DNA from: Austropuccinia psidii
Lineage: Eukaryota; Basidiomycota; Pucciniomycetes; Pucciniales; Sphaerophragmiaceae
Length of the DNA: 64,000 nt
Assembly (NCBI GenBank): GCA_023105745.1
Contig: JALGQZ010000003.1
Location: 74,188,696 to 74,252,695 of the forward strand
Reading direction: 5' to 3'
Part shown: positions 7,404 to 28,235 of the stretch, piece after piece
How positions within the stretch are numbered: the stretch's first letter is position 1
How the letters are laid out: the number at the start of each line of letters is the position of its first letter
Translations under genes and position numbers: made by a program
The notes under the pieces: generated by a model
Database searches by the model: none
Seen by the model: only the letters and a program-made list of their open reading frames with translations
What the model was told of the DNA's origin: nothing

Positions 7404-7449
7404 CACCAGGGCGAATCTCGCGTCAATCGTCGGCGATTGACTTCACGTC
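7404..7449 (+). repeat. Left terminal inverted repeat of CACTA element
   Basis: 46 bp, matching the reverse complement of 28190-28235 except at positions 5 and 18. The repeat contains its own hairpin: GTCAATCG and CGATTGAC around a TCGG loop. Immediately to the left is the target duplication CAA. Confidence 0.93.
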
Positions 7450-7785
7450 GCACCGCGGTCAGTATAAAATCTTGCTTCAGTCGCGTTAGTGTCACTTTAT
7501 AGTCACTGGATTTAGTGGGTCACGTCACGTCAGCGTCAAGACAACGTCAATCGTCACATGTGTCACATGAGAATGTCACTCAAAGCCCAAACCCATTTCA
7601 ACACTATGCGCAACGTTCGTGTAATTTCACCTCATTGGCTTCCGCCTCCCCGACGCTTAGCATGCTTACGCACCCGCACCGCCCTCCATCCGGATGAGAC
7701 TCCGACACTGCCCGCCCCTCTCCGTCCTCACCACTCCTTACGCTTTCACACCCCCGCCCCTACCATCCTCACGCTTGTGTAATAC
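7450..7785. promoter_or_regulatory. Left subterminal region with ACGTCA repeats
   Basis: Several copies of ACGTCA/CGTCA(A/C) are packed at 7515-7560 next to GTCAC motifs. The right end has the same core in inverted orientation (28110-28189), which is typical of transposase-binding subterminal repeats of CACTA elements. A TATAAAA lies at 7463-7469, but no gene is visible directly behind it. Confidence 0.5.
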
Positions 7786-8335
7786 CCTCCCGACATGCCT
7801 CCGACACCACTGATGACCCTTACGCTTGTGTAGTGCCCTCCCGACATGCCTCCGACACAGCTTACCATCCTTACGCTCATGTAGTGCCCTCCCGACATGC
7901 CTCCGACAACAGTTACCCTCCCTCCCGACATTCTCCCGACACTGCTTACCATCCTTACGCTCATGTAGTGCCCTCCCGACATGCCTCCGACAACAGTTAC
8001 CCTCCCTCCCGACACTGCTTACCATCCTTACGCTCATGTAGTGCCCTCCCGACATGCCTCCGACAACAGTTACCCTCCCTCCCGACATTCTCCCGACACT
8101 GCTTACCATCCTTACGCTCATGTAGTGCCCTCTCGACATGCCTCCGACAACAGTTACCCTCCCTCCCGACATTCTCCCGACACTGCTTACCATCCTTACG
8201 CTCATGTAGTGCCCTCCCGACATGCCTCCGACAACAGTTACCCTCCCTCCCGACATTCTCCCGACACTGCTTACCATCCTTACGCTCATGTAGTGCCCTC
8301 CCGACATGCCTCCGACAACGCTTACCATCCTTAAG
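7786..8335. repeat. 84-bp tandem repeat array, about six units
   Basis: The landmark TTACGCTCATGTAG recurs at about 7871, 7955, 8028, 8112, 8196 and 8280. The spacing is 84 bp, except for one 73-bp unit lacking an 11-base piece. Because 84 is divisible by three, several frames are open across it on both strands, giving repetitive 100-220 residue peptides; I treat these as artefacts. It lies in the left subterminal part of the CACTA element, before the first gene. Confidence 0.85.
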
Positions 8336-8355
8336 CTTCCGTACTACATCCATAG

Positions 8356-8383
8356 TGTGTACGGTGGCTTGTTGGCGTACACA
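8356..8383. promoter_or_regulatory. Palindrome 1, upstream of gene 8858
   Basis: Arms TGTGTACG and CGTACACA flank a centre GTGGCTTGTTGG that is less symmetric than in its relatives. It lies 475 bp before the ATG at 8858. One of six such sites in the element. Confidence 0.55.
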
Positions 8384-8857
8384 ATGGACGCCATTGCCGA
8401 AATATGCTGAGTGGCCTTCTCTGCCAACAGGACCTCAGGGGAAATTGGTCAGTATATTCACAATGTTGTGGCTAGGGTTTAAATCATGAGACTCACAAAT
8501 TAAAACCTAATAAGTGGACTATTTAAGACAAGAATTGTGTCTCCTGTTTCGCCGACAAAACCATTTTATTTCATATCAATCAAATGAACACTTTGCTTAG
8601 TCCTTACCTCATGAGCATTGAATAGTTCAAAAGTTGACTTTAGTAGGTTTCTCACTAGTCAACTTTATTCAATGTCTCACAGGGAAGTGATTTCATTTGC
8701 ATGATATGAAATAATTTGCAAAACATCGCCTCCTTCAATTTCCCGACAAATCGCATTTGCACCTTTTTTCTTGAATTTGGATCTTTTATCAAAAAATTTT
8801 CAAACAAGTTAGCAATCAACTCGTCACCATCTATTTGCTTAATAAACTACCTCCGCT

Positions 8858-11085
8858 ATGGCCCGAACCCCGGGAAATTCAACAGAATTCAATGAACGAC
8901 CAACTTCAGCCCCAGAGAGTGGAAGTGAAATCTCTGATATCGCCAGTAGTCGTGAATTAGGCATTGAAGTAGAGAGTAATCAAGATCCACCAGTTCTTCC
9001 GGAATGTGAGTATGCATCCATCTTTAATATTTCAAATCTCTCAAAACCTGATATTGTGTCATAGCCTTTATTTCAGGGCAGCCTCCAAGCTCTCAGAAAC
9101 CGAATTTTAAAAGTTATGAGAAGGAAAAGACTGTTGAACCTTGTGCACCGACAGAAGATGATGGGCAAGATGATGTAATTTTCAGTGGGGAGGTGGAAAT
9201 TATATCCAAGGAACAATTTGTCTCCAACATTGCTCAAACAATCCCAAGGCTCGAAAAAATCCAAAATGATAGTAAAATTCCTGATTATGTGCGTCAAAAG
9301 ATTGCTGAAGCCATGAGCCTGCTCAAAATGGATTTGAACCGTAAGTCCATTACTAATTCAAAACAAAATTGATAAAAATAGCTGCTTACAATATATGGGC
9401 AGGTGTGGAGGTGGGAGAATCTCTACCTGAAGGATCTCGAGTCGTAATTGGATTTCCAGGCAAAGGATTAGGAAAAAGACCAAATATACATGCGACCAAA
9501 AAAACAAACAAAAAACGCCGTACCTTTGAAGCCGCAAACGATTCTCGCGATCAAGGTGATGAAATTATCAATGTTGAAAGGGACCATATTGATAATGAAC
9601 CTCCGCATACTGAACCCCCCCCCAATACTCAATGAAACAATCCATGATGAAGCTCCACATACTGAAAGCCCCCCGATACCCAATGAAACAATGCATGATG
9701 CAACCCCTCCCGCCTCTCCTCGGAATATTCAAGCCTTTCAAGAAAGGGAAACAATTAAACATGATACAATGGGACGAGATATGACTGATATAATTCCCGA
9801 CGCTGAGCCCAAAGTGTCATCCACTGCGAATTTTCAAGGAATATTTTTATCCCGCATGGAAGAGTTTGCAGGCGTTTTGAATTATCATTCCAATATTACT
9901 CAACAATCATGGAAAAGGGGGCTTGATAATATCAATAGGATTTACAAAAATAGATGGGACAATTTACCAACAAAGGATGCTCATACATTCCTGCCCATTG
10001 GTATTAAGGTGATCAGTAACCGAGATCTTAAAATGTCGGCTTGGCTGCAGGACCTTGAGATGGCAGGTGAGTTTTTTTTTATCTTTGTGCATGATACTTG
10101 ATTATTGGCTGTTGACTGGTGATATAAATTGCAATATACAGGGTTAGATTTTTTTAAGCCAACCGAAACAGAAGCGTTTTTTGATCACAACATTTGGAAT
10201 CTCAAATTGATGAAGGAATCAGCTAAACCTCCAGATAATCTCGCAAAATCTGAACACTCCTTCTTCAAAATGGTTCAGAGCCTTCTTTACCCCGCCAATC
10301 CAGTTAAACATTTTTGGGCAAATGTTATGTTTGAATCCATTAGTTTAGTCTCATACGATGTGATTGCACCCAAACCATATGTTGCACCAACATCAAATTC
10401 AACCGATCCTCTTGGACTCAAATGGGGAGCAGTTGAATACCTTGCCTCCTGCTTGAGTAAATCGAAGCAACGTGCAACCCAACTCAGCATTGAAGGTGGC
10501 GGGGCTGAGAATGAGATATCCACAAAGCCGCACAAGAACCTGGAGGATCTGATGGATACAGTTATCCATTTGATGATTGCGTACAACATGGTACGTGCAC
10601 ATACAAAGGTCGAAGTTAATGGCATCAAAGGCAAACTCACAAACTCAAAAAAAAATGAGGCCATCAAAGATCTTTTGGCGTGTCACAAGAATCTTGGAAT
10701 CAATCGAATTTGCTATGGTATATTAGCGGCATTCTGTGCGGCGGGGGTTCGTGGTTTGATGGTATGCTCAGATGACTGGAGAACAAGCTCAGTTAAAGGG
10801 GCTTTAGCACTAATTGACATTTCCGCAAAACTTTCAGAGGGTAAAAATCTAGTGGAGCCAGTGTGGCTACGTACTAATAAGTATATATGTAATTTACTGA
10901 ATAAAAGTTTCTTCTCATCAGAGTCTTTTAACCCCACTGTACCTCTTAGATTTGATTTTGCACGATGCTTAGTATTAGACTTTGGTGATGCCTGGGTGGC
11001 GAATCGCGGGCTTGGTTCAAGTGATGAGGTCACCTTGACGGTACCCAGGTCAGCTAAACTCACAACCAGGATTGACCCGTTTTAG
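8858..11085 (+). CDS. CACTA cargo protein of unknown function (frameshift in exon 3)
   Basis: I do not recognise a family. Four exons are supported by good splice signals: 8858-9005, 9077-9340, 9403-10066 and 10142-11085, with donors GTGAGT, GTAAGT, GTGAGT and CAG or ACAG acceptors. The product would be about 670 residues. The N-terminal part is acidic and low-complexity, followed by a basic KKTNKKRR stretch that could be a nuclear signal, a PH.E.PP..NET repeat, and a compact C-terminal domain of about 310 residues (exon 4) rich in aromatic and aliphatic residues. Summed exon length is not a multiple of three. The frame shifts by one at a run of nine C at about 9607-9615, so the gene is either broken or miscalled there. 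It leads the plus-strand genes of the transposon, and its association with the TET gene suggests a shared role. Also possible is a capsid-like or DNA-binding accessory protein; I cannot tell. Confidence 0.7.
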
Positions 11086-11662
11086 ATTAGCTTTGTACTA
11101 GATAGATTGTAATTTAATTTTGCAAAGTTATTTATGAATTTAATAATCATGACTTCCTATCCTACTACTGCCCGGATGCCACAGTCTGAGTACCAATAGT
11201 AATTGTACGGCGGCATGCCTCCGTACATCATTGCGAAGACTCCGACAAGACGCAAGCTGAGTCAGGCGTTGTGCCCGCGAGTAGCACACGCGGGGGCATT
11301 GCGGGAGGTCGCGTGTATCACTTCACGCCAGCCCATAATAGGCAAAAGGTTCCTGTGTCTTTCAAGAGGAGTGGGATAACTAGGGATCCGCAGCAGGATG
11401 CATATTGCATTTGCGTGTGCTTGCAATATTCTAAATTGCTGGATTGGAAAGTGATTGCATGGGAACATCAATGTGTAAAATTGAATAATGCACTATCCAC
11501 TGCAATTTTCAGGTTCAGGTATTTGAGATCGTGAATTTGCCAAGGTCAGGCGTGAGCTTTCTTTTTAGCCGCAATTAAAAAAGATTCATCCATCGCAATC
11601 CAATTTAGGTGATATTAAGAAATCAGTAATCATTCGGTTTCATTTCATTTTCTGCTGAAAGC
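11086..11662. other. Intergenic region between unknown gene and TET gene
   Basis: No gene seen. It contains palindrome 2 (11204-11227) and then ordinary promoter-like sequence up to the TET start codon. Confidence 0.5.
11204..11227. promoter_or_regulatory. Palindrome 2, CGG-N10-CCG, upstream of TET
   Basis: 24 bp: left half TGTACGGCGGCA, right half TGCCTCCGTACA. The CGG and CCG triplets are separated by 10 bases, the geometry bound by some Zn2Cys6 factors such as yeast Put3. It lies 435 bp before the TET ATG. Confidence 0.6.
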
Positions 11663-13007
11663 ATGCCATTCACGAAAAAAGGAAAAGAGCGTAAAAGGGA
11701 ACTCGCGAGAAAGCGTCGGGCTGAGGAAGGAAAGTGTGAGTTACTCGCTTAATCTCAGTGTATATATATAGATATATATATATGCTTCCACATTTATGTG
11801 GAACCCTCATTGGGCCCCACTGAAGAACATGGGCTTTAGTCGGTTCAGATTGTGCCAATGTCATGTGGGCTCCAACAGGGAAGTCAAAGGATGTGTGCCG
11901 AAGAAAGCTCCTTGGCAGTATCTGATATCTTGTGTGCTTCAACACATAGTGATCCCGCAACCACTCGGGAATAGTAGCAGATCCCAAAAGACAAATGAGC
12001 GCAAAACGACCCGAATGAATAGGTTTTTTTCCTCCTGTCGCCCAACAGCACAAATATCAATGCCAGTATCAGCAAATATCACCCCAAGTGAAATTCGGAG
12101 GGTGGTGGATGTCAATCAGATCAAACGCATTCACTTTGGCCGTGTGGCAATTTTCTCTTCAACCGGATTACTCATTGCCCTTGTTGAATTCCGACCATTC
12201 ACAACAATGAGTGAAGTCGAGGTCAATCAATGGGATGAATTATCACAATTCTTATTTCGCGAAAAGAGGTTCACTGACCCTATTGCAACAAATGGAGCAT
12301 TACTGGAGGGATTTATGTTCGCGATTGGGTGGCGCAAATGCACCACGAAGAATGAACAATTTGGTCTGTATGGTAGTGCTGGCAAAATTGAAAATGCAAA
12401 AGATGAATGGCGGGACCGAGGTGCCAATCTTAGCTCGGTGGGTCGCATTCTAGGTCAATCCTTACGATATGTTGGGGATAATTTATTTCAGAAGATTCAA
12501 AATTGCTACAACTCATTGGGGGTTCCGTCTTTTGATCAAGTCAACTATGAAGGCGATATTCCGGCAAATCAGGGTGCATTCGAGTTCACTTCTGCACTCA
12601 CTTTCACCATGAATGGATTCAAAAACGCACCTCATGTTGATAAGGATGCATCGCTGTATGCTTCGGGATGGTGGTTTCAAGCTGATAAGCGGACCGGCCA
12701 AATTCAAAGAGATGCGTCAAAGTGGTGTACAGGGGGAAAATTGATTTTCCCAAATGAGCATTTTTGGATTGATCTATCCGCATGTCATGGGCTCATTCTG
12801 GTAGTGTGGGCCAGTAGTACATTTGTTCATTATACTGATCCAGCACAGGACAATGAAAGCACGACACTAGTGGGTATGTCCGCACAATGCTCAAGCAGGT
12901 TAGCAAAAACAATGCGGCAAAAAAGCAATGGCTATTATGAGATTGGCGAGAGAGCGGGCTATCAAATCAGGGATGGTAATACAATCTCATGCCGATTCAA
13001 AGAATGA
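11663..13007 (+). CDS. TET/JBP-type 2-oxoglutarate Fe(II) dioxygenase
   Basis: Predicted to oxidise 5-methylcytosine (or methyl groups on thymine) in DNA using Fe(II), oxygen and 2-oxoglutarate, in the nucleus. The best model has a short basic first exon (11663-11735, MPFTKKGKERKREL..., rich in K and R) and a second exon (12049-13007), total about 343 residues; the 313-bp intron is the least certain part. The iron-binding HxD is visible as APHVDKD (H about 220, D about 222) and a distal histidine as STFVHYT (about 285). The order and the GWWFQADKRTGQIQRDASK region agree with the fungal Tet-like oxygenase family as I know it. No stops or frameshifts; all catalytic residues I can check are present. 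A diverged copy of its tail lies at 3466. TET/JBP genes of basidiomycetes are known to travel with transposons, mainly the KDZ class; here it is inside a CACTA-type element. Confidence 0.88.
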
Positions 13008-14164
13008 GGAGATTTGCAAGTGGGTTGGGTAAGTAATGGTGAGGTAAGGCAGAGGACAATATACACCAGGATTGGATGGATTCGAGTGCGGGAGATGGGG
13101 TGTCTCACATGAAAAAGGGGTGAAGTGGATTATGTACGGTGGCATGCCATCGTACATCTGTCCTGGTTTGTTGCTATTGTCCAGGATGCCAATGCTTCAC
13201 ACGCGAATCCTCATGCTTGTGCAGGTTCTGACAATGCTGAAAGTTCCTTACACCTATGCGGGGGGCCATCGCTACACACGCCAATCCTTATGCCTGTGCA
13301 GGCTCCCGAAAGTTTACACGCCAATCCTTACGCCTTTACAGGCTTTCGACGATTCACACGCCAATTCTTACGCTTGTGAAGCTTCCCCACAATGCTGAAA
13401 TTTTCTTTAGCCTGTGCAGGATCCCAAGAATTCACACGCCAATTCTTACGCCTGTGCAGGCTCCCAACAATTCACACGCTAATCCTTATGCTTGGGGAGG
13501 GTCCCAAAAGTGCTAAAATTCCTTACGCTAGTACAGGCTTCCGACGATTCACACGCCAATCCTTACGCATGGGAGGGTTGCCAACAATGCTGACAAATTC
13601 TTACGCCTGTGCAGGCTCCCAACAATTCACACGCCAATCCTTATGCCTGTGCAGGCTCCCAACAATTCACACGCCAATCCTTACGCCTGTGCAGCCTCCC
13701 GACAAGTCACACGCCAATCCTTACGCTTGTGAAGGTTCTAGCCAATTTAAACAATTCAATACATGAGTAAGACTAATAGCGTGTGACCATAGGAAAGGCC
13801 ATGTTTCACGAATCTGGACTCAATTGCTCACATACGGGAACCTCCCGCTTTTTTACAGTTAAGAATGGGTATGGCTCTAAACCATGGGAGAAGAAAATAT
13901 AGGAGAGGATAACGGCAACTATTGGCGCATTTTGAGAAAAAGAGGTTCACGAAAACAAATACTCACTCAAACTCTTGGTGGGGCACTTACAAAAATAATT
14001 CTCACGCAATCAGGGTTTTTCTCTAAGGAGGAAATAAGTAATTTTTACGTGAACAAAGAATGTAATAGAATTTGAACATAACAATAATTTAAGACAAATA
14101 TTTTATTCAAAAGAAAGTATTACATAAAATAAAAAGAGGAAATAATGACATTTTTTTTAAATTT
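13008..14164. repeat. Palindrome plus 40-bp minisatellite between convergent genes
   Basis: After the TET stop comes palindrome 3 (13133-13156) and then an array from about 13190 to 13750. Its clearest unit is 40 bp (CACACGCCAATCCTTACGCC + TGTGCAGGCTCCCAACAATT), cleanest at 13560-13720. The core CACACGCCAAT recurs near the right end of the element (27735-27905). From 13750 to 14164 I see no gene, only AT-rich sequence before the 3' end of the minus-strand zinc-cluster gene. Confidence 0.8.
13133..13156. promoter_or_regulatory. Palindrome 3, downstream of TET
   Basis: 24 bp: left half TGTACGGTGGCA, right half TGCCATCGTACA, one mismatched pair. It starts 126 bp after the TET stop codon. The relic copy has the same site at 3780. 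Confidence 0.6.
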
Positions 14165-15528
14165 TTATTTTTCGAGGAATTTGGAGACCATCCCGGTTAT
14201 GTCCTCCTTTGGATAAGCCTCCAGTGCCTGGGCAAGGAGGGAGTTTAGTTCCTCCCGGAATTCCCGGTGCATCTCATTTCGATGAGTTGCATCCACGAAA
14301 GGAATCATGTGGAGCAAGCGACGATGCTCCAACAAGATTCGGTTGATCGAATCGTGGACGATGGCTCGAGGAATCATTAGGGTCGGTCGCAGGTTGGTGA
14401 ATTCCTGGCGAGCGTCATCGTGAGAATGAGACGAGCTTGGCACCGGGGGGGAGGAGGCGTTGGGGTTCTCGGGGGCACTGGAAGGGATCTCTGGGGAGGG
14501 AACCGGTGTTGGAGTGGAAGGGGAAGATGGTGGAGTCGGTGAAGAAGAAGGGGGAGGGGGATGGGGTGATCCCACGGGCGTATCGTCGATGATGATGATC
14601 GAGCGAGGAGTGGCGGGACGATCTGGAGACGGTCGAAGAAAAAATGAGGAAAGGTGAATATGGATCGAAGAGAAAGAAGGGGTGACTTACCATAAGGTTC
14701 CTCCGTGGATTGCGTAGGAGCCACCTCAGGTTCTGGCTCACGAGTCGTATCGTCCTCAGGTGGTTGGGACGATGGACTCGGGCCAGGAATAGGTGGCTCT
14801 TCGGTTCGGGAGGGTTCTAAAAAAGGAGTAAGAGTCAGTTCACTCGACTCGAAAGTGAAAGTGAAAATGAAATGAAACTTTGGCTGCTTACCGCGGAATA
14901 ATTCCTCAGACCATCGGGTGCCACTCGGGCCTGGAGTGGGTTGCCGGGGGGTTTGCTCGCGAGGCAAACTGGGAACGGGAGAGTCGTGTCGGGGGGGATT
15001 CGGGGGGTTTGGTTCTATGAGTAATGGAAAAAAGTCAGTATTATTGCGTGAAGAGAAATGAGATAAAGAGGAGAAATAAAACTTACTTTGGCGTTTGAAT
15101 CCCATCGGTGACAAGACATGGTGACGATCAGCCCAAGCTCGAATGTCCTCTCGCCATCGCCATCCTTCATCGGCCGGATAATCACTTCGCTCCGGTCGAG
15201 GAGTGAAGTGACCATCGGATGGTGGCCTAGGAGGGGGAGTGGACAAATCGATACTGGAGGGGACAGGGCTAATCGTCCGGAATCGTTCCCGTTGGCCTGT
15301 TTGGGGGCCCGGCGTCCATTCACGCTCGGAAATGGTTTCATCATCGTCGACCACAAAGGAGTCCTCGCGAGGGCGTCTTGGGCGAGAACTCGTCTGGCCT
15401 CGTGGTCGGAAGGGGCGGACAACGAACGAACATTTCTTGTGTGCTTGTCGGCAAGCATCACAAGCGTCGTTCGTCGTCGAGGAGCGAATGCAGGGGATAC
15501 CCCGCTTGGTGCATAACGTGCACGACAT
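14165..15528 (-). CDS. Putative Zn2Cys6-like DNA-binding protein
   Basis: Four exons on the minus strand, 15528-15087, 15014-14892, 14816-14691 and 14622-14165, all with GTAAG donors and phase 1 junctions; product 382 residues. The N terminus has six cysteines at 3, 6, 13, 23, 26 and 33 (CX2CX6CX9CX2CX6C), the spacing of a fungal Gal4-type binuclear zinc cluster. The second half, CDACRQAHKKC, resembles the basic recognition half. A basic stretch RPFRPRGQTSSRPRRPR follows, then proline- and serine-rich linkers, then a conserved C-terminal domain of about 110 residues with acidic helices (about 270-382). It is probably a nuclear DNA-binding protein that recognises sites in the transposon or host; the CGG-containing palindromes are the obvious candidates, but this is inference. 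Other cysteine-rich folds are possible. A decayed copy lies at 4990-6305. Confidence 0.75.
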
Positions 15529-16137
15529 CTAAAAACAAAACAAAACAGGTTAGTAACTGAATAGAAAGTAAGCAATCAAGAAAGAAAAGGAAGACATACG
15601 ATGATTTATATAAATTTAAAACGGAATCAATATAAAAACGCTCTAGTCGGAAGTTTTTAAAAGTCTGGAAGGAAGTCGTGAAGAAAGAAAAATATTAATA
15701 TCGGTACATAATGTTGACGAAAGTTTAATTGGAGAAAACGTACAAAGTAGATAGAAGTGGGGTTCTGAAAGTATTAGCAGGAAAAACAAAAAGCGAGCAG
15801 GAAAGGGGGTGGGGTTAGTCGAGTGCGAAAGAAAAGACTGGAAAGGCAGGAAGACGAGGGGGAATACGCACAAGAAGGACAAACGCGGGTGAGGTTGAGC
15901 GAAGTGGAGCGGGTGAGAAAGAAAGTGAAGTGCGTGTCGTGTGAAGATGGTCTTTTATACCAAGGTGAAGCTGAGACAATCTCAGCAGTTGCAGCACCCG
16001 CAAAAGTCTCAGCTTCAAGGCGTGTGGGCAAAATTGAAGCTGAGTCTCAGCGAATGCTGCAACTGAGAAGTGAAATGCTCGCGTGAGGCAGAAGAACAAT
16101 GGGGGTCTGGCTGAGTATTTCAATTTATTGAATTGTC

Positions 16138-16843
16138 AAGCTGAGTATTGCAATTTATTGAATTGTCATGCTGAGTCAAATCCCCTTTGTTTCCTTAAAT
16201 TGCCACCCGATCACCCAGGAGGGTGGTCGTGAGGCCCTTATTGATTGTGCATTGTGGGTGCAATGCACAAGTGACCGCGGCAAGATCACCGGCCTTATGG
16301 CCTGGTGATAGTCTTTGAACAAAGGGGGGGCTGTAAGACAAGTGAATACAGCGTGAGCTTGCCTCGACCCATTGCTCAGGTTTGCTTTCGGGTCATAATT
16401 GAAATGCTCAGTGGCTGAACATTTTAATTGCACAGTAATTGAACAATTGATATAACAATATCAAATGCACCGCTGAGTATTGCAATTTATTGAATTGTCA
16501 AGCTGAGTCAAATCCCCTTTGTTTCCTTAAATAGCCACCTGATCACCCAGGAGGGTGGTCGTGAGGCCCATGTTGAATGTGCATTGTGGGTGCAATCCAC
16601 AAGTGACCCATGCAGAAAAGCACCCGGTGCATTTGGTCACAAGTGACCGCGGCGAGATTACCGGCCATATGGCCTGGTAATAGTATGTGAACAAAGGGGG
16701 GGGCTGCAAGACAAGTGAATACAGCGTGAGCTTGCCTCGACCCATTGCTCAGGTTTGCTTTCGGGTCATAATTGAAAAGCTCAGTGGCTGAACATTGGAA
16801 TTGCACAGTGATTGAACTATAGATATAACAATATCAAATGCAC
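16138..16843. repeat. Imperfect direct duplication (about 330 and 370 bp)
   Basis: Both copies run from GCTGAGTATTGCAATTTATT through CGGGTCATAATTGAAA to ATATAACAATATCAAATGCACC. The second copy differs by an insertion around 16595-16640. Function unknown. Confidence 0.8.
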
Positions 16844-18176: not shown

Positions 18177-18200
18177 TGTTCGCTGTCACACCAGCGAACA
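18177..18200. promoter_or_regulatory. Palindrome 5, upstream of SNF2 gene
   Basis: Arms TGTTCGCTG and CAGCGAACA with a six-base centre TCACAC. It ends 366 bp before the SNF2 ATG. It is a variant of palindrome 4, sharing the TGTTCG outer arm. Confidence 0.55.
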
Positions 18201-18566: not shown

Positions 18567-21133
18567 ATGTCAACCCCTTCACAACCACTTTGCATTGGGA
18601 TGATTAATATTCGTATTCAAATAAATAGTGATATAACCTTAAAGCCTGAGAATTCCCACTTAGGTTCTTGGATTATCCTATGGCACAATCAACACAACAT
18701 ATTCGTATATCTCCCCAATCACCAGCATGCTATTGGCTCTCTCCCGGGAACCCTTTCCCAAACGTTGATACCATTCCTTGGGGCACCCAAAACGTTCATG
18801 CACTGTGGTCCTGGTGGGGCATGGATTGAAAATTGCCAATCCAATCCTACTCAAATATTATTCGTTGAGGGAGTATTTATGACTGATGCCAATGATCCCT
18901 CCTCATCTCAGAAACCCAATCTAGCATTGATGTTCTTCACATGGTATCCAAACGTTCTATTCATAATGGAAAGCTTTCGAACACAAGATTTCAAGCTTAA
19001 AATGCCCAAAGAATATGACTGTACTACTCATTGTCAATGTCAACTCTTTACTCCGACATTTCCCGCTTCAAACTCGACGCCTGCTTCATATCCTGCTGTT
19101 TCATCATTGATTTCCAAGCAAAAACTGATACAATTACCCAGTGGATCAGACCTCCCCATGATGACCCCGCCCCATGCCATTATTCAAACCCCCCTCCTCC
19201 CTCATCAAAAGACCGGACTAGCTTTTCTCTGGGATCGAGAAATCCCCAATGGCCAATCAGCCCGTAACCTTTGGGCAACCTCACCCCCAGGATCCACTTT
19301 TAATGCCAGGCACATCATTACAAACAAGGTCGTTAGCTCATTTGAATCCCTTTCGACCAATACCCCTCTTGGAGGACTGCTTGCGGATGATATGGGATTA
19401 GGTAAAACCATTCAGGCCATTGCTCTAATTGGTACCTCCAAGGAGCGGATGATTGCAAACCCCCATCGCTCCACCCCCACCATGATCATCTGCCCCCCTC
19501 GCTTAATTACCAACTGGAAATCAGAAATATCCAAGCATGCTCAGGCTGGAGCACTGCATGCCAAAATCTACCATGGTCCCACTCGTCACTCATTATCCCA
19601 AGCCGACATCTTAAAATATGATATCATCATCACTTCTTACAATACTATCACCCAAGAATTTAAGCAAACCAATCCCTCTACATCATTCATTTTTCAAATC
19701 AATTGGCATCGTATAATCTTGGATGAAGCACAGTGAGTGGCTGAGCTTAAATGATTCAAATTACCTTTTATATCCAATAACCCTTGCCCCCTCTTATAGC
19801 TATATTCGCTCTCAATACACTGCCACTCACCGTGCCATTAATAGCCTCCTTTCATCCCATCGAATATGTTTAACGGGCACACCTATTCACAACACCATTT
19901 ATGACCTTTTGGGCATAATATCCTTCATCACTCAACCCCAGAGCGCCGATCAAGATAACTGGTCACCATTCATCCTGAGTAGTCTTTCAAAAGGTTGCAA
20001 TGATATTTTGCATTTGGCATTGCGGCATTTAAGTTTGCGCCGCACCAAAACCACACATCTCGAATCTCTCCCCACTATTAGCCATCATTATGAGCTGCTC
20101 CCACTCAACCCGACCATGCAGCAAGAATATTCCACATTATATGAAGAATTCCTATCATCCAAAAGCAAAGGACCAGGAGAGTTTTTCAGAAATATTAATA
20201 AGCTGCGAATATGTTGTAACCATCACATCATGCTTAACACAATTGCGGAGGCGGAGCTGGAAGACCCCGAGGGCAGGAGCACTCAGGATAACTCCCCAAG
20301 AATCACACGAACTATTGTGGATGTGGAAACATGCATGATGAGTAGTAAAATTGCACACCTTCTACAAAGCTTAATGAAGAACAAACAAACAAGGTGTGGT
20401 CCAACGAAATCGGTGGTTTATACCCAATGGACCCAATTTCTAGATTTGTGCGTTAATTCTAATATGCATCCATTACCAATTGACTCCATCTGACTTTTTT
20501 ATATTGTAGAATTGGTATTGCTCTTGCCCATCACTCTATCCTTTCAGCACGAATTGATGGAACAATTACACCACGAGCGCAGGACAAGGCGCTTGAGAAT
20601 TTCTTCAATAATCCTGAATGTGAAGTACTCATTGCATCCATTGCCGCGGCTGGAACTGGCCTCAATATAACTTGTGCTAATGTAGTCTATTTAATGGTGA
20701 GGGGCCCCCCAAAATTCTCCCCTGATTTTCGGACCCTGACATCCACATTTCCAGGAGCCCAATTGGAACCCAGCCATTGAGGCTCAGGCTGTTGATCGTC
20801 TACATCGTATTGGCCAACAACGACCTGTACAGGTCATCCACTATATCACTCCTCATTCAGTTGAGGTCAACATGCGGAAGGTACCTTTCAAGCTCATCTT
20901 TCACTTGATTGTATTACTATTCTGAAATCATTCCTTATGGGAATGCCATATTCCAATTACCAATAGGTCCAAGAAAAGAAAAAATCATTAACTGCGTGAG
21001 CCTTACTGATATTATATAATTTGTGATTGACAAAGTTGATAACTCCTGTTGACTCTGGCACAGGTCCACAATTATGAACACCATGAGCTGGATCGAACTT
21101 CTTCAATATTTCCTCAATGAAAATGAGCAATAG
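18567..21133 (+). CDS. SNF2-family DEAH ATPase/helicase (Rad5/Rad16/HLTF-like)
   Basis: Six-exon model: 18567-19732, 19800-20447, 20510-20696, 20755-20880, 20967-20995, 21064-21133; 2226 nt, 741 residues, in frame. The helicase motifs appear in order: Q-type LLPHQKTGLAFL, motif I DDMGLGKT (near 277), motif II, motif III LTGTPIHN (about 413), motif IV VVYTQWTQF, motif V AAGTGLN and motif VI DRLHRIGQQRP (678-691). Unspliced sequence reads DEAQ and stops; splicing at 19732/19800 restores DEAH. If the last intron is not used, the protein ends at 20999 instead. The ATPase would move or strip proteins from DNA or remodel nucleosomes in the nucleus. The first 200 residues are unlike anything I recognise, and I see no RING finger. 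In this transposon it may open chromatin for TET or transposase; that is inference. Confidence 0.85.
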
Positions 21134-21305
21134 AGTATTATTGCAAGGGAGACGGTGATACATTTCAATTCATATTGTCTATATTCTAACATATTTAGCA
21201 AGTTGTTGCATCCTTAAGAGATAATAATCAGATTTTATTACACCTGCACAAATAATTCACAAAATTTTAATTTGTCACAGTGCTATACCGTGACCAATTA
21301 CTAAG

Positions 21306-23367
21306 TTATTGCAGAGCATCACCATTAGGCCTAATAACTGGAATGTCAAGTATCTTGAGGGCGCTAGTCTGCATCTTACTACAGCCTTTGAGCCAATCTT
21401 GATCAAATACCTGAAATGATAGGCCTTCCGGAATATCACCATCATCTGTCGATCGTAATTCTGGCAATCTATCAATAGTTTTTTTACCCTTTTTTTCAAT
21501 CCGATTACAAAACTCTATGTCTCTATCCATTTTCAATACCAAATCATTAAATAACTGGGAGCGCCAGCGTAATCCCACTTTGCGGTAAACTTGACGGCCA
21601 TTTTCCAGTACCTCCTCAGTATCTGAGCATACTCGAGGGTCATTGAATTGTGATGCTAGGATGGGAAATTTAGCCGTATCACACCATTCACGACGGCGCT
21701 CACAGGTCTGCACATAATCAAGTAGATCATCATCAGACTTGGTCCACAATGAAGAAGAGATACAGTAACTAACTCTTTGACGAATCTTTGCGAGCTTTTG
21801 ATTCTCCTTCTTTTTTACCAAATACTCCGCATCCTTTTGAATAGACTTCCATTCTCTTTTCAAATAAGTGAAATATCGCTCCATTAAAGCCGCCACGACC
21901 CCATAGTTGTTATGATCCTTGTTCCAACAGTAGTGATGATACTCAGTGCTGACAAGTGCGAGACGGAATGTACGGTAAAACACCATAGACATCAGCTCGT
22001 TGAACGGATGTTGCCATGAGCTCTCCCAGTCCCAAGTGAATCGCTTTAGTCCTAGCTTGTGCAGCTCATTTTCGCAGTAGCTTTGGAAACCCTGAGACTG
22101 AACTTGTGTTGATGGCTCATTGAACACATCCTCGGGGACATATCCGAGATGACCAGCCACTTGAATTGCAATTTCACGCTCTTCTGTGCTGGGTGGTGCT
22201 GGTAGTGAGGAAAAATCCTTATCCCTAACTTTGAGTAGGAACAGGCAATGTGCGTGTACTGCTGATCTCATTCCATGGACATTCTCTGGAAGTTCTGCCT
22301 TCAGCCATTTTTGTTGCTCCTTCTGGCTTGCACGTTTCGCCACATTGTGAGCTTTGCGGGCCTGGTTCCTTTGCTGTCTGACCTCGGATTGTTCAAGCAT
22401 ACTCTGGGCGAGGCCCAGCTGAGGATGGGTGAACTCACTATTTGATTGAGTGCCTTGCTCATGCGCTGTGAAATTGTCCCTCCTTGGTTCATCATTTCTT
22501 TCACTTTGAGTCGGAGACATGTTCTCATCCTCATCATCCACCATTGTTGCTCTTGATGTACTGGCATGACCCGTTCTTGGTTTGGAGGCATATGGATGAT
22601 GACGTCCAGTGACTTTCTCTTTATGGACCAGAGGTGAAGACGCATAAAGTTCATCCCCTGCTATGCAAATCATCAGTTAACACATCAAAACATTAATGAA
22701 GACTGGTCATCCTCACGATCTTCAATTGGCTCCTGAGATCGGACTGACTTGCCTTTAGGTGCCATATCTAACCCATGAAACAAACATATCAAATTGTGAA
22801 TAAGTTTCTACTCCAAAATTCAAATGACTTACTTTGATGAAGCGTCAATACTGGATTTCCCTCCGACAGACCGCTCCAAGATACATTTTCCAAAGGTCTT
22901 TTTCGTCGTCCCCCATCCACGTGCCTTTCATGAACCACATGAACCTGCGATCCTGATGGAATATTGAGGGTTGGCTGTTTACTTTGGCCAAAGGGATCCT
23001 GGGATGCGACTGGATTCCGACCGGGATTAAGGAGGAACTCACGTGGAAATTTTGATTGGGGATTAGCGTGTGAGGAGATTTGAGGTGTGCCTTCTGGCCC
23101 CTGAGACACATGAATTTGTGTATTAGTGGGATTCGGGGGAATTGGAGTGACGGAAATATTTGGGATCGACCAAGTGCTTGAAGTTGGAGCCTTTGGATTG
23201 CCCACATCAATGTTAAGACCTGATACATTCATTGAGGATGCGATAGGGGTTGTGAGAGGAATGTTGGGACTCAATGGTGACTGTGTTTGAACATATTCTA
23301 TGCTAGATTCACTATTTGAGTCATGAACAGAACCTGAACGGGATTTATGTGACTTGAAAGATGACAT
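21306..23367 (-). CDS. Transposon-encoded protein of unknown function, rust-type family
   Basis: Three exons on the minus strand, 23367-22833, 22767-22717 and 22660-21306, give 646 residues with no stops. The last junction has two adjacent acceptors (CAGCAG-type), so one residue may vary. The first 180 residues are serine/proline-rich and include GGRRKRPLE, a possible nuclear signal. A glutamine- and arginine-rich, probably coiled-coil segment follows (EQSEVRQQRNQARKA). The C-terminal 400 residues form a conserved-looking domain with FQSYCENELHKLGLKRFTWD and a run of W and Y residues. I remember similar proteins in other rust genomes but know no function. It sits tail-to-tail with the SNF2 gene (170 bp gap) and head-to-head with the transposase. 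By position it could play the role of the second (DNA-binding) protein of CACTA elements. Confidence 0.7.
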
Positions 23368-24327
23368 AAGGGCTGAAAAAGTACAGTAATATTTTTAACT
23401 AGATAAAACACCTCAGTATTATGATAAAATAGAGTGATATGAGATGAAATCTTTTCAAATTTAGAATAGAGAAATTCTATGAATAGTTGGAACTGGGTGT
23501 TGTGTGGAAGTCAGATAAGACTCTTTTGAGGAGAATCCTCCCTGCCTCCTCTTGAGCTCCTCCGCTTTTGTCGGAAACCACCCTGCACGGCCTACCAGCA
23601 TATAATGTGGTATTTCCTTGATCTCAAAGGGGACCCATCATTCATAAGTAATCATATTCAGTACCATTTATGCCTCCCCATTGTCACATTTTGTGAATTA
23701 TCCAAACTGCCCATATATGCATTGAAATTCCACAACATTGTACATCTGTAAAGGGGTATATTCATGAAGGATTTACCCACAAAAGAGACATCACCTTTTC
23801 CCGAAAGGCAAGACAATCCAAATCACATTCCAACTGATTCAAAGCCCGCCGCACTCAAACCAAATACCAAGACTTTAGCTGCACTCCAACCCCTTATGTA
23901 ATAGAGTTATATAGTTATGTCTGTAATAAGGTTTAAACCATGTACGATGGCGTGCCAGCGTACATGGATTAAATGTTAATCCCCTCAATTCAATGGTAAC
24001 ACTTCACTAATGGAACCCCCTCAATGGTCAAACCCGCACTATCACAATGTGTAAATAAACTAGAATATGTATGAGCATTGAGCAGCATGGCATTTTACCC
24101 AATTAAACGCCTAACCAATTCCGCCATCCAGATGAGACATGTTAAACTTTATCCACTGCAGCTCATGCTCCATTACAAATGGGATGAAATCCTCAGCTGG
24201 CTCAAATCATCTCCCCCTTCATAAATAATCACTGAATTTTATTTCCAATTAATAACACTCCTAAACACTTTCACATCAACCATAGATATTTATACACAAA
24301 CCAACCGTACTCCCAATTCCTGCAGCA
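23368..24327. other. Divergent promoter region between unknown gene and transposase
   Basis: No gene. It separates two genes transcribed outward and holds palindrome 6 near its middle, so one regulatory site could serve both. Confidence 0.55.
23938..23967. promoter_or_regulatory. Palindrome 6, in divergent promoter
   Basis: 30 bp: left half CCATGTACGATGGCG, right half TGCCAGCGTACATGG, with a few mismatches near the centre. It lies 360 bp before the transposase ATG and about 570 bp before the start of the minus-strand gene. Confidence 0.6.
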
Positions 24328-27300
24328 ATGACAACCCGGCCATATTCCTCAATGCGTATATGCATGTGTCAACACTGCTCAACTCAAACACACTCTTCCC
24401 CTGAGGGTGATAGGCAAGGAGTTGCCTTCACACCTTTCCAATATAAACAGCACATTAAAAAGCTCAAATCAACCATTGCACCCAAATCTCTTCCAAACAT
24501 CCCTACTTCTGCATCAGGATCTGGGTGCCCACAAATTCTATTGGATCAAATCTTCCCAGCTGATTATTCAGTTTGACCCAAAGCACTTTCCCAACTCCAG
24601 CGGGTCTCAATTCAACTGCACAGAAACCATATAGTGGCAGTCAAACCCTTCCCCCACAAGACCTAGGAATGATAATATCTGCCATTCTATCATTAAGGTA
24701 TAATTTACCCCGCAGGGCTTCACGCATACTCAACCCCGCCCTGAACCTGCTGATCAAGTCCAGTATCTCAAGCTCAGCTGGTCCCCCCGCTCCTGCATTC
24801 CATATACCTCAAGATCTGAGTACCATATTTGAACATCTCCAATTGGAGCCAGTGATTCAAAACTATATATTTTGTCCTCAATGTTTCTCTCTTAATGGCC
24901 TTACTGAATCAGTCACAACTGACCAACCCCACTGTCAACGCCATAATGACCCAAATGATCATGATCCCCCTTGCACACAATCATTAGGCAAATTCATCTA
25001 TTCATCTGAACCCCACACCCAAAACACAACCAACATGAAGCAAAAATTTATACCAACAAAACATTTCATTTATCAACCATTCAAAAATTGGCTTGCCAGA
25101 TTTCTCCAGCGGGCTGGAATTATGGACATTCTGCATCAACATCAACAATCCCAAACTCCCGAAGATTCCCCAAAACGTGACGTCTGGGATGGATTGGTCT
25201 GGAGACGCTTCACTGGCACTAGAAATATCCATGACCCCCCATTCATGTCCATTCCTGGTGCATTGGCCTTCTCCATATATGTGGACTGGTTTAATGCACA
25301 TGGAAAGTCAACCCGGTTGGCAAGCATTGGACCTATCATGCTTATTTGTCTTAATCTCCCCCCAAGTGAAAGATTGAAGCCCGAGAATGTCTATGTTGCA
25401 GGAATCATCCCTGGTCCGAAGGAGCCAACTGCGCTTCAATTGAATTATCTATTAATGCCACTCATCAACGAGCTCAAAGAGCTATGGCAAGGTTACCATT
25501 TTGCACCCACCTCAACAGGTCCATCAGGATCCTTTATCCGTGTTGCCATCCTCACAGCCATTGCGGATGTGGTTGCCATGCGCAAGCTTACTGGATTTAT
25601 TTCCCATTCAGGAAACCACTTTTGTAATTTTTGCACCATTCACAAAGCTCAAATTGAAGAAATTGGTCCTCAATTTCACTACACGCGCTCATACCAAAGT
25701 CATAAATCAACCATTGCCAAATGGCTTCGGGCAACCCCACAGCAAAGACAAGCAATTTTCTCTGAGTATGGAGTGCGATATTCAATTTTGGAAGACCTTC
25801 CGTATTGGGATGCAACCAGAATGGTTAATCTTGACATAATGCATAATTTAATACTTGGAATTTTGAAGGATCATGCAACTTTCAAATTGTGCATTCCAGA
25901 GGCGAAATCAAAAATTTACTTCAGGTCCCGCAGGAAATCCAATGACACCAACAGTTCAGACTCAGATTCCATGACCTCCAACAGCTCTCTTGATAAAATC
26001 ACATTGAGAGAGGCCCGCTCCCTGAGAAGAGACGCAGCAAAAATAATAAATGAGCCACTCCCCACTACTTCCACCCGGAAAAACTACTTCCCAATGCCCA
26101 CCCTTCACACAGAACATCCATCTAGTGGTTCTGCGGAGATTCCTTCATTTGATGCCGATTACATCCCCACTTCTGAAATACCCTCTGAATTGGATATCAC
26201 TGCACTGAGCGATCACCAGATCAAGGGTGAGGCTCTTGAGCATCTCCGACAAATCATATCTGAGACCATAATTCCCTCATCATGGACAAGAGTTCCCCGC
26301 AAAATGGGTTCCCCCTCTCATGGTAGCTTAAAAGCCGCTGAATGGGCTCTCTTATATAAGGTCTATATTCCATTTCTAATGCTCAGTCAACAGATGTCAT
26401 TAGATGCACACCAATCCGCCAACACACAAAGAAAAATGGGTCAGTCAGAAGAACTTGCAAATGAACTAGCCAAGAATACATTCCATTTGATTAGTGCTAT
26501 CAACATTGCCACAAGCTGGACTGTTTCAATAGATGATGCGACTGCATTTGCTGAACATTGGAAAAAATTCCGCCTTTCCAATCAACACCTGTTCCCAAAA
26601 CAGAAAAGTAAACCAAATCATCATTTTGCTGATCATATTCCCGAACTCTTCCAACGTTGGGGCCCAGCACAAGCCTCAGCCACATGGGGTTATGAGCGCT
26701 TGATTGGAGTATTTGCAAAGATGCCAACAAATAACAAGATATGTACGTCAATTAATAAGATCAATATATTCACATTGATGAAACACCTGAACTGAATAAG
26801 ACTAACTTTTTGCAACTCTGAATAGATGATATAGATAAAACCTTACTTCAACATATCTGTCGATGTTCCAACCTTTCCGTTCTCCTGAAATCCCCATCTG
26901 TGCCATGTGAAATAAAACAGCTTTTCGAATCACAGCCACCTGCCGTGTTCAATCACCATAAATATAACAAGCCATCCCGCCATGACCAACAAAATTATGC
27001 TTGCCTGGTTGAGTACTTACAGAATTTTCATTCCACAAGGGAAGTAGTTGATTGGATCAGCTTAGACACTACCATGCAATCCACAAGTCCTCCCACTTCA
27101 AGGATTGTCTCACCTTGGTATTTTCCAGTTTCAAACATTAATATTGGGAACAATATATTTTCAACTGAATCCAAAAATATCAGCAACAGTGTGATATGTT
27201 TTCTGAGGGGCAACTCACGACAATTTGGTATTATTGATAGCATTTTCAAAGTCTCTGAGCCATCTAGCATACTGAATAATAACTTTCTGATTTTAAAAAC

Positions 27301-27487
27301 TTTGAAGATTGATGTGAATTTCCTACCAGATTGGCCGTATCTCAATATTTATAAAGCTGTTGGTTTTGATGATGGACACTTGATTATATCAGAAGAAGAA
27401 ATAGAAGGTAACTGTGGATTGTATGATAACAAAGCTCTGTCATTTGGACTGCTTGTAATGATAAAGCCGTTATTTCATGATATTTAG
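24328..27487 (+). CDS. CACTA/Plavaka-type transposase (Tnp2 family)
   Basis: Cuts and moves the element by recognising its terminal and subterminal repeats. The N-terminal exon begins at ATG 24328 and has a cysteine/histidine cluster (CMCQHC) like other Plavaka transposases. The long frame at about 24573-26742 carries Tnp2 signatures: SIYVDWFNAHGKS, ENVYVAGIIPGPKEPT, the zinc-like FCNFCTIH, NLDIMHNLILG and GYERLIGVF. The D in VDWFN (about 25284), the D in NLDIMH and the E in GYERL are good catalytic candidates. An intron 26743-26825 (GTACGT...AATAG) joins the final exon 26826-27487. About 1000 residues in all. The first and second parts are in different frames at about 24570, in a TTT run, with no convincing intron; one base seems missing. 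So it is either slightly broken or a sequencing error. Confidence 0.85.
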
Positions 27488-28189
27488 TCTACAAAAATGC
27501 AAATCTCTCAGATTCATTAGCAATTTTGCTAGTGAAATCATTGCCTCAAAATTTAGTGACAGAGACATGCCATTGTGACAAGCAAAGCCCATTATTTCAC
27601 ATTGCCACAAAGAACTTACTATTTTGACATTGGGTACAGTGTGAATAAGCCAAGTCCAATGATCAAATAACCCACACACTCACCTTTCATAGCATCCAAA
27701 ATTTCTAACTGCGCCATCATCATGTTAGAAGCGGAATCGGCTTTTGCGTACCCACACCCGCATGTGCACCCGCACGCGCCAATGCACACGCCAATGCACA
27801 TGCACACCCACCCGCACACGCCAATGCACACGCCCACCCACCCGCACCCGCACACGCCAATGCACACGCAAACGCGCCCGCACACGCCAATGCACACGCA
27901 CACTTCATGGATGACCTGGTGAAGTCAAACCCCCCGCCTACATCAAAACTGGCTGAAGGACATCTTTGATGTGTGTGTGTGCAAACAGGCGGGTCTGGTG
28001 TAATTTTTACCAATCATCGGACGGTTGTGGGATGATCAGGTGGTGAGGAATCTGAGTTGAAGGCACAGGGGAACCAATATTATTGGATGTCACAGGATTT
28101 GGTGTAAGACCAGAGTGTGACGTGTGCTTGACGTTCGCTTGATTTTTGCTTGACGTGAGCTCGACTTTTATCCTGCTTGACGTTTGCTT
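27488..28189. promoter_or_regulatory. Right subterminal region: CA-rich microsatellite and inverted ACGTCA motifs
   Basis: 27735-27905 is a simple array of CACACGCCAATGCA-type units. 28110-28189 has at least four TTGACGT motifs, the inverse of ACGTCA at the left end. No gene: the open frames crossing the CA-rich block are only repeats of H, P and T or C, G and V. Confidence 0.6.
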
Positions 28190-28235
28190 GACGTGAAGTC
28201 AATCGCCGACGATTGACACGAGATTCGCCCCGGTG
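28190..28235 (-). repeat. Right terminal inverted repeat of CACTA element
   Basis: 46 bp inverted copy of 7404-7449 with two differences. Immediately followed by the second CAA of the target duplication. Confidence 0.93.

What the first reader, a model, noticed from the sequence alone, without database searches (positions are those of the whole stretch)
7404..28235. A CACTA-type transposon carrying a TET dioxygenase, a SNF2 ATPase and a zinc-cluster protein
Seen: exact 46-bp terminal inverted repeats, a CAA target duplication, a Tnp2 transposase, and five further genes between the same ends. Known: basidiomycete TET/JBP genes are linked to transposons, chiefly the KDZ class. Inferred: this is a mobile epigenetic cassette, in which TET removes methylation, SNF2 opens chromatin and the zinc-cluster protein recognises sites. 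The combination in one 20.8 kb CACTA element with defined borders is, as far as I know, not described.
Basis: partly seen in the sequence, partly recalled or inferred. Interest (0 to 1): 0.92.

Follow-up and report, generated by a model that had tools for sequence, protein, structure and literature searches.

The report
Rust transposon carrying anti-silencing gene set
A large and abundant jumping gene in the myrtle rust fungus carries, beside its own transposase, a relative of DNA-demethylating enzymes and a SNF2 motor protein that selection appears to have kept working, which suggests that it resists the silencing of its own DNA by its host.

Summary
The element is real. Window 7404-28235 is a 20,832-bp CACTA/EnSpm-type transposon with 46-bp terminal inverted repeats (44 of 46 matching, not exact), a CAA target duplication, and empty sites in three LTR-like copies in the window. 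The genome, Austropuccinia psidii by its named protein matches, holds 485 exact copies of the 5' terminal repeat. Of 6 copies read beyond their first half, 5 are collinear through SNF2 and Tnp2; 4 of these were read to a 3' end with a perfect 3-bp duplication. The genes travel together: 50 TET-SNF2 pairs at 6.77-6.88 kb, and 9 of 10 probed Tnp2 loci carry both. Variants among copies indicate purifying selection on TET, SNF2, Tnp2 and two orphan genes, while private TET variants look neutral. TET and SNF2 are thus maintained parts rather than chance cargo. TET-bearing rust EnSpm elements are already published (Kojima 2025), so the kind is known. New here, as far as my searches go: SNF2 as a second maintained accessory gene, the gene set, and a CpG-rich array of paired CCGACA sites. 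The SNF2 is nearest RAD5. The zinc-cluster gene is unproven. Demethylation is inferred.

The parts
7404..7449 (+). 5' terminal inverted repeat, 46 bp, begins CACCAGGG
   Evidence: 44/46 match to the 3' end; 485 exact copies in the genome, reversed control 0
7401..7403 (.). target duplication CAA, left copy
   Evidence: CAA also follows the 3' end; empty sites in three copies of the host repeat
7760..8340 (+). CpG-rich subterminal tandem array, 24 CCGACA sites, many in pairs 11 bp apart; 84-bp unit
   Evidence: TRF 84-bp period x 6.0 at 7836-8330; 24 CCG and 0 CGG; CpG o/e 1.11 for 7404-8340; site counts vary between copies
9640..11085 (+). gene A, orphan gene, unknown function; one short intron by the relative P0241; true start uncertain (the frame 9052-9372 may belong to it)
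   Evidence: P0241 aligns to 9691-11082; 93 of 93 homologues are A. psidii; constraint in 10150-11082; third-position excess in 9052-9372
12015..13007 (+). TET/JBP-like 2OG-Fe(II) dioxygenase (PF20515), HxD and distal H present; candidate start codons at 12015 and 12060
   Evidence: Pfam E 8.4e-46; 101 of 101 scored genome matches full length without a stop; constraint; starts
13275..13737 (+). second tandem array between the TET and zinc-cluster genes
   Evidence: TRF
14165..15528 (-). zinc-cluster-like gene; N-terminus C-x2-C-x6-C-x9-C-x2-C-x6-C; exons unresolved
   Evidence: Pfam Zn_clus below cut-off; all six Cys kept in 19 of 20 copies; constraint not significant among shared variants
18567..20850 (+). 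SNF2 ATPase; exons about 18567-19733, 19801-20448, from 20511 to near 20697, and a last exon from near 20758 holding NWNPA and HRIGQ; end uncertain
   Evidence: Pfam, exon mapping, motif places, nearest solved chain RAD5, 106 of 106 scored genome matches of exon 1 full length at >=99%
21309..23394 (-). minus-strand gene of unknown family, candidate TnpA-like partner
   Evidence: 119 of 120 listed homologues (of 172) named A. psidii; N/S ratio 0.39 for 21309-22655
24286..27487 (+). Tnp2-type transposase region; this copy's frame is shorter than in most scored copies
   Evidence: PF02992 E 1.6e-15; 60 of 60 scored genome matches 99-100%, open frame 836 aa in 58
27754..27910 (+). 3' side short tandem array
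   Evidence: TRF 12-36 bp periods
28118..28194 (-). five subterminal ACGTCA repeats, read inward from the 3' end; the last overlaps the terminal repeat
   Evidence: 8 of 12 ACGTCA copies in the element lie in its terminal 300+300 bp; places
28190..28235 (-). 3' terminal inverted repeat, 46 bp
28236..28238 (.). target duplication CAA, right copy

Best explanation
This is an EnSpm/CACTA transposon of myrtle rust that carries a maintained anti-silencing module. The Tnp2 transposase, probably with the minus-strand protein as its end-binding partner, cuts and pastes the element. The TET-like enzyme is proposed to oxidise 5-methylcytosine on the element, so that the CpG-rich ends and the subterminal CCGACA array can again be bound and transcribed. 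The SNF2 translocase is proposed to clear nucleosomes or bound proteins from the same DNA, or to help repair after transposition. A DNA-binding protein of the element (zinc-cluster, gene A or the minus-strand protein) is proposed to target them. Shown or indicated: recurrent borders with target duplications, co-travel of TET, SNF2 and Tnp2, purifying selection on TET, SNF2, Tnp2, gene A and the minus-strand gene. Inferred: substrate of TET, role of SNF2, targeting, escape from silencing.
For: 485 exact 5' ends; 5 of 5 copies read to both ends, the window included, have perfect 3-bp duplications CAA, ATT, CCT, TTT, TTT. 101 of 101 scored TET genes are full length without a stop and 103 of 106 scored SNF2 first exons have no stop. 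50 TET-SNF2 pairs at fixed spacing, the window's included; exact 5' end at the expected distance for 15 of 18 TET, 13 of 19 SNF2 and 7 of 14 Tnp2 hits in the stretch listed; probe test 9 of 10. Shared-variant N/S ratio 0.41 for TET (p < 0.0005) against 1.24 for private variants; six-copy second half: SNF2 stretches 0.49 (p 0.002), 0.34 (p 0.0025), 0.54 (p 0.11), Tnp2 0.42 (p < 0.0005); four antisense controls 0.98-1.30. CpG o/e 0.65 in the element against 0.20 and 0.36 in the rest of the window. The host methylates TEs: 'TEs were hypermethylated' in A. psidii (PMC12774611, passages).
Against: The TET claim rests on one Pfam family and the HxD..H residues; no solved TET structure matches by sequence and the AlphaFold model is unusable (pLDDT 33). 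CpG transitions among private variants are about 8 times as frequent per site as other C/G transitions (0.315 against 0.038), and those among shared variants about 10 times (0.231 against 0.024), so copies are not fully protected. Seven of 20 fetched copies have a broken TET frame. Published data say younger A. psidii TE families have higher 5mCpG ratios, with no family exempted in the passages seen. The SNF2 is RAD5-like, not of a clear nucleosome-remodeller type. Zinc-cluster constraint is not significant among shared variants (0.79, p 0.15). Nothing here shows expression.
Confidence: 0.66

Rival explanations
1. The TET-like enzyme is maintained for another chemistry (6mA, thymine, or a hypermodified cytosine mark) that labels or shields the element, and SNF2 serves transposition or repair rather than chromatin opening. 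The genes are functional parts, but not a demethylation cassette.
For: Kojima states that the function is not experimentally validated and that other activities cannot be excluded for the PU type (PMC12730594, parts read). SNF2 is nearest RAD5. CpG sites still decay.
Against: No modifying partner such as a glycosyltransferase was matched in the 10 window frames or the 9 proteins; CpG is the reported methylated and depleted context in this species.
Confidence: 0.22
2. TET, SNF2 and the others are passive cargo, captured once and amplified with the transposon without a function for it.
For: Transposons do capture host genes; Kojima describes TET transfer between transposons as passive. The zinc-cluster gene shows little constraint.
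Against: N/S ratios for TET and two SNF2 stretches as low as for Tnp2, and near or above 1 in private TET variants and antisense controls; at least 101 full-length TET frames and 106 full-length SNF2 first exons among those scored.
Confidence: 0.06
3. Tnp2 and the ends are the unit, and TET/SNF2 lie there by chance nesting in this window only.
For: The window is full of nested repeats; one of 10 probed Tnp2 loci has retrotransposon-like sequence at both probe positions.
Against: Collinear copies with the same ends and fixed spacings genome-wide.
Confidence: 0.01
4. The high CpG content reflects recent amplification or an unusual base composition, not protection by TET. (This concerns the CpG argument only and does not exclude the other explanations.)
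For: The copies were chosen by an exact 61-bp end and so are young; published data link TE youth to higher GC and more CpG sites. CpG transitions are common among both private and shared variants.
Against: A retrotransposon-like insert with a 1,924-codon open frame in L027 has CpG o/e 0.05, so an intact frame alone does not bring CpG retention; but that is one element and its ancestral composition is unknown.
Confidence: 0.4

Closest known systems
TET+ EnSpm of rust fungi (Kojima 2025, PMC12730594)
   Same: EnSpm-type transposase, CAC..GTG ends, 3-bp duplications, a TET/JBP gene inside; related A. psidii EnSpm families and four Austropuccinia TET clusters are mentioned
   Different: The main text has no mention of SNF2 or zinc (0 occurrences). 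Its Table S1 and Repbase entries could not be read, so this very family may be listed there, perhaps without the accessory genes.
Plavaka / KDZ TET-linked transposons of basidiomycetes
   Same: Fungal TET-transposon link; weak Plavaka match in the transposase (25.4 against a cut-off of 26.3 bits)
   Different: Ends are CACC..GGTG with 3-bp duplications, not the Plavaka ends described; Tnp2 scores well above cut-off; no KDZ family appeared in the Pfam list
Maize Spm/En with TnpA
   Same: CACTA element with a tnp2-domain transposase; TnpA activates Spm and this correlates with DNA demethylation (PMC10398659, passages); GC-rich, possibly methylation-sensitive subterminal repeats (PMC2613891, passages)
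   Different: Spm relies on a binding protein; here an oxidase gene is on the element. The likeness of CCGACACTGCTTA in the array to the En/Spm motif is recalled and could not be checked in a held paper.
Arabidopsis VANDAL elements with VANC
   Same: Transposon-encoded anti-silencing; targets often form tandem repeats that vary between related elements (PMC5735166, outline and abstract)
   Different: Unrelated transposase and no oxidase gene (recalled)

Membership tests
CACTA/EnSpm superfamily | Tnp2-type transposase | tested here: met
   PF02992 57.3 bits, cut-off 28.6
CACTA/EnSpm superfamily | 3-bp target duplication | tested here: met
   5 of 5 copies read to both ends, with empty sites
CACTA/EnSpm superfamily | CAC..GTG termini | tested here: met
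   CACC..GGTG; rust EnSpm described as CAC..GTG
CACTA/EnSpm superfamily | literal CACTA pentamer at the ends | tested here: not met
   Ends read CACCA and, complemented, CACCG; not required by the published rust EnSpm description
CACTA/EnSpm superfamily | subterminal repeats | tested here: met
   CCGACA array and ACGTCA repeats
CACTA/EnSpm superfamily | DDE triad with C(2)C and H motifs | not tested
   CNFC is visible in the frame; no alignment of the catalytic residues was made
Plavaka | Plavaka transposase and TGT..ACA or CATCA..TGATG ends | tested here: not met
   25.4 bits against cut-off 26.3; ends differ
PU-type TET/JBP dioxygenase | Tet-like 2OG-Fe(II) domain | tested here: met
   PF20515, 157.1 bits, cut-off 27
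PU-type TET/JBP dioxygenase | HxD and distal His of the iron site | tested here: met
   HVD or HLD in 19 of 20 copies, FVHY in 18 of 20, found by motif search on the translated frame; no structural check
PU-type TET/JBP dioxygenase | position in the PU tree of Kojima 2025 | not testable with these tools
   Table S1 and its sequences are not held; supplement look-ups allowed: 0
TET family | fold match to solved TET structures | tested here: inconclusive
   No sequence match to a solved TET chain; model pLDDT 33, so no fold search was run
TET family | oxidation of 5-methylcytosine | not testable with these tools
   needs an assay or oxi-mC maps
SNF2 ATPases | two-lobed SNF2_N plus Helicase_C motor | tested here: met
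   window exons 1 and 2 match SNF2-rel_dom; relatives P0021 and P0090 pass both cut-offs, P0036 misses Helicase_C narrowly at 23.1 against 23.5; window motifs LTGTP, GTGLN, HRIGQ in place
RAD5/HLTF group of SNF2 | closest solved relative is RAD5 | tested here: met
   profile of 8 relatives: RAD5 E 3.8e-34, next 1e-23
RAD5/HLTF group of SNF2 | RING and HIRAN domains (recalled as typical) | tested here: not met
   no such Pfam match at E <= 0.1 in P0036, P0021, P0090, which are database models and may be incomplete
Zn(2)-Cys(6) zinc-cluster proteins | curated Zn_clus score | tested here: not met
   14.1 bits, cut-off 21
Zn(2)-Cys(6) zinc-cluster proteins | six cysteines with the zinc-cluster spacing (spacing rule recalled) | tested here: met
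   C-x2-C-x6-C-x9-C-x2-C-x6-C, all six kept in 19 of 20 copies

The most novel reading that the evidence does not exclude
The element is a self-contained, self-targeting demethylation machine: one of its own DNA-binding proteins recognises paired CCGACA sites about one helical turn apart in the CpG-rich subterminal array and brings TET there, while the RAD5-like SNF2 clears the DNA, so that the transposon erases silencing marks only on itself. That would be an enzymatic counterpart of Spm TnpA and Arabidopsis VANC, in a family with 485 exact 5' ends in one genome.
Probability: 0.22. Interest if true: 0.87.

Novelty: new variant of a known kind. Interest (0 to 1): 0.62.

Why it matters
TET-bearing fungal transposons were known, but the use of TET to the element was argued from undisrupted frames (PMC12730594). 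Here constraint on TET and on a second accessory gene, SNF2, is measured against private-variant and antisense controls in copies with defined borders. With 485 exact 5' ends in a chromosome-scale genome of a species with published long-read 5mC calls, the question whether a transposon can demethylate itself becomes directly testable copy by copy.

Tried and rejected
Chance nesting of TET and SNF2: rejected. Plavaka or KDZ membership: rejected on transposase score and ends. The three exceptions to the full gene set that I looked into have retrotransposon-like sequence in place: L027, L012 and the locus near C12:39186859; I call it retrotransposon-like from its LTR layout and by eye from the long frame, no family scan of it was run. 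The six database models that join gene A to TET disagree with each other about exons, so I left a fusion open. Structure models of TET and gene A were unusable (pLDDT 33 and 44), so no fold search was run. The protein searches listed only A. psidii among named hits (best 120 of 310, best 120 of 172, 93 of 93), so distribution in other rusts is untested; the genome tool offers no relatives. NCBIfam matches of the SNF2 relatives are to bacterial SNF2 families far below their cut-offs and say nothing about function. Four other genome questions (families PF12851 and PF20515, the 3' end as DNA, the 3' terminal-repeat pattern) did not complete. The anchor failed in 19 of 20 copies and was replaced by the count. 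One search measured spacings without allowing for strand; one search corrected this.


Full report
Organism. The genome that holds the window has 1,015,390,075 bases in 84 contigs. Of the best 120 listed (of 310) relatives of the SNF2 frame, 119 are named Austropuccinia psidii MF-1 and one is unnamed; for an orphan gene of the element 93 of 93 are A. psidii.

Borders. The element runs from 7404 to 28235 (20,832 bp). Its 46-bp inverted repeats match at 44 of 46 positions, so 'exact' is wrong by two bases. CAA flanks both ends. The insertion lies in a 1.8-kb repeat laid out like an LTR, at 6582-7403 plus 28235-29252, with further copies at 33263-35058 (inverted), 37479-39204 and 55419-57258; these three uninterrupted copies show the empty site.

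Recurrence. The first 61 bases matched at 100% in 40 of 40 scored places (1,528 candidates). The exact 46-bp 5' end occurs 485 times (243 forward, 242 reverse; reversed control 0 and 0). I fetched the first 10 kb of 20 of those 40 places: 19 are collinear with the window copy over TET and the zinc-cluster region, with main blocks 91.3-97.5% identical; L024, the most diverged, also has blocks down to 79.5%. The twentieth, L027, is cut after about 680 bp by a retrotransposon-like insert with a 1,924-codon open frame. These copies were chosen by an exact end, so they are biased to young ones. Of six copies whose second half I then read, L013, L018, L020 and L023 reach the 3' repeat with perfect duplications (ATT, CCT, TTT, TTT), L028 is collinear as far as fetched (to 20,454, then repeat-shifted to 20,663 of 20,832), and L012 is collinear to position 11,744 and then runs into the window's LTR-type repeat. 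L013, L018 and L020 are 97.5-98.1% identical to the window over their long blocks and 20,629, 20,893 and 20,765 bp long.

Do the genes travel together? The three gene searches score only the best of thousands of candidates (101 of 7,789 for TET, 106 of 6,463 for SNF2 exon 1, 60 of 10,065 for Tnp2), so missing pairs in these lists say little. Even so, 50 TET and 50 SNF2 hits, the window's included, pair on one strand at 6,770-6,875 bp (window 6,795); 7 SNF2-Tnp2 and 2 TET-Tnp2 pairs were found in the same way. In the part of C1-C3 covered by the 100 listed exact 5' ends, 15 of 18 TET hits, 13 of 19 SNF2 hits and 7 of 14 Tnp2 hits have such an end at the expected distance; the rest lack an exact end there and were not examined further, save one that was probed. 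As a test with places fixed before reading, I took 10 of the 50 Tnp2 hits without a partner in the lists and read 301 bases where SNF2 and TET should be: 9 of 10 have both at 98.3-100% identity; the tenth has retrotransposon-like sequence at both places.

Genes. Pfam gives Tet-like 2OG-Fe(II) oxygenase PF20515 (E 8.4e-46), SNF2-rel_dom PF00176 (E 1.6e-31 and 3.3e-14 in two exons) and Tnp2 PF02992 (E 1.6e-15), with Plavaka just below its cut-off. Relatives of the SNF2 protein add Helicase_C and no RING or HIRAN, and a profile of eight of them is nearest RAD5 among solved structures (E 3.8e-34, next 1e-23). In the window the motor motifs GLGKT, DEAQ, LTGTP, GTGLN and HRIGQ lie in open exons (that these are the motor motifs is recalled). 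Gene A (9640-11085) and the minus-strand gene (21309-23394) match no Pfam family above cut-off. Six of 93 gene A relatives are database models joined to TET; whether gene A and TET are one gene is open. The zinc-cluster frame starts with six cysteines in zinc-cluster spacing (rule recalled), all six kept in 19 of 20 copies, but scores below Pfam's cut-off. The window's Tnp2 frame is shorter than in 58 of 60 matches; intact copies exist, so this copy is probably moved by others.

Selection. In the alignment of 20 first halves I compared changes shared by 2-10 copies, which arose mostly in active lineages, with private ones, which arose mostly after insertion, against a neutral expectation that keeps the mutation types, CpG included. 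Shared: TET 27 replacement to 23 silent, ratio 0.41, p < 0.0005; gene A3 0.40, p 0.005; the other gene A part 0.51, p 0.11; zinc-cluster 0.79, p 0.15. Private: TET 1.24 (p 0.83), gene A3 1.04, gene A 0.60 (p 0.08), zinc-cluster 0.74 (p 0.03). Second half, six copies, L012 dropped because beyond 11,744 it is another repeat, all minority variants without a shared/private split: SNF2 stretches 0.49 (p 0.002), 0.34 (p 0.0025) and 0.54 (p 0.11; this third stretch, 20511-20771, probably runs past the exon end), minus-strand gene 0.39, Tnp2 0.42 (both p < 0.0005). Antisense controls gave 0.98, 1.00, 1.06 and 1.30; four stretches taken as non-coding gave 0.81, 1.11, 1.22 and 2.71. The copies are related, shared CpG changes may be recurrent, and gene models are partial, so these are indications, but TET and SNF2 stand with the transposase. 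The TET frame 12093-13004 is intact in 13 of 20 copies.

Methylation. A. psidii TEs are reported hypermethylated, younger families more so, and CpG loss is attributed to deamination of 5mC (PMC12774611 and PMC8063080, passages). The element has CpG o/e 0.65 against 0.36 (left) and 0.20 (right) in the rest of the window; the first halves of 20 copies give 0.68-0.80, and the frame of the insert in L027 gives 0.05. Against a simple escape story, private transitions at CpG are 0.315 per site against 0.038 at other C/G sites, and shared ones 0.231 against 0.024. So copies are, or were, methylated; whether active lineages are protected is not settled, and recent amplification could explain the composition.

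Ends. The 5' subterminal region holds an 84-bp tandem array with 24 CCGACA sites, all in one orientation, many in pairs 11 bp apart; the whole element has 34, plus 4 on the other strand. The number in the first 1.7 kb varies from 14 to 32 among 19 copies (7 in the interrupted L027). ACGTCA, which contains CpG, has 8 of its 12 occurrences in the terminal 300 bp of the two ends (the word was chosen after looking). Arrays that vary between copies recall VANC targets (PMC5735166, outline and abstract) and the subterminal repeats of CACTA elements (PMC2613891, passages). The resemblance of CCGACACTGCTTA in the array to the En/Spm motif is from memory; the one paper found with that string is on another subject by its title.

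Prior art. Kojima 2025 (PMC12730594; outline, parts 2-5 of 7, figure legends and a term search seen) describes TET-bearing EnSpm elements from rusts with CAC..GTG ends and 3-bp duplications, related EnSpm families in A. psidii and four Austropuccinia TET clusters, and proposes escape from silencing. Its main text has no 'SNF2' or 'zinc'; supplements could not be read. Searches with TET, JBP and CACTA (20 of 22 papers listed), with SNF2, CACTA, TET and fungi (5 of 5), with SNF2, transposon-encoded and anti-silencing (15 of 115) and with Plavaka, Dileera, SNF2 and rust fungi (15 of 19) showed no title or abstract start on an SNF2-carrying TET transposon; two A. psidii genome papers have no 'SNF2'. 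Iyer et al. 2014 is not held. I therefore file this as a new variant of a known kind.

Mechanism. Most likely the element carries its own anti-silencing module: TET acts on 5mC at CpG-rich ends, SNF2 removes obstacles or aids repair, and one of the binding-type proteins targets them. The first step is supported by homology and constraint only; the second and third are inference.

Noticed in passing
window 3465-6582: A decayed relative of the element's TET-end to zinc-cluster stretch (76-82% nucleotide identity to 12834-15819, with stops) lies just outside the element, so at least one older subfamily existed.
   Followed up: partly
window 6582-7403, 28235-39204, 55419-64000: The host repeat looks like LTR retrotransposons with LTRs of about 1.8 kb and a lone copy inserted inverted at 33263-35058.
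   Followed up: partly
window 50001-52000: An island of CpG o/e 0.85 in otherwise CpG-poor DNA, with two short frames (50269-50652, 50711-51115).
   Followed up: no
G000 C12:39.18-39.41 Mb: Six of the 60 best Tnp2 matches cluster within about 220 kb; the one probed has retrotransposon-like sequence where SNF2 and TET would be.
   Followed up: partly
L027:985-9994: A retrotransposon-like insert with a 1,924-codon open frame but CpG o/e 0.05 in it, inside a copy of the element.
   Followed up: partly
window 9640-11085: Gene A is an orphan with relatives found only in A. psidii (93 of 93) and shows constraint in its longer part; its function is unknown.
   Followed up: partly
window 44764-45213: AT-rich direct repeats with spacings of 43-132 bp.
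   Followed up: no
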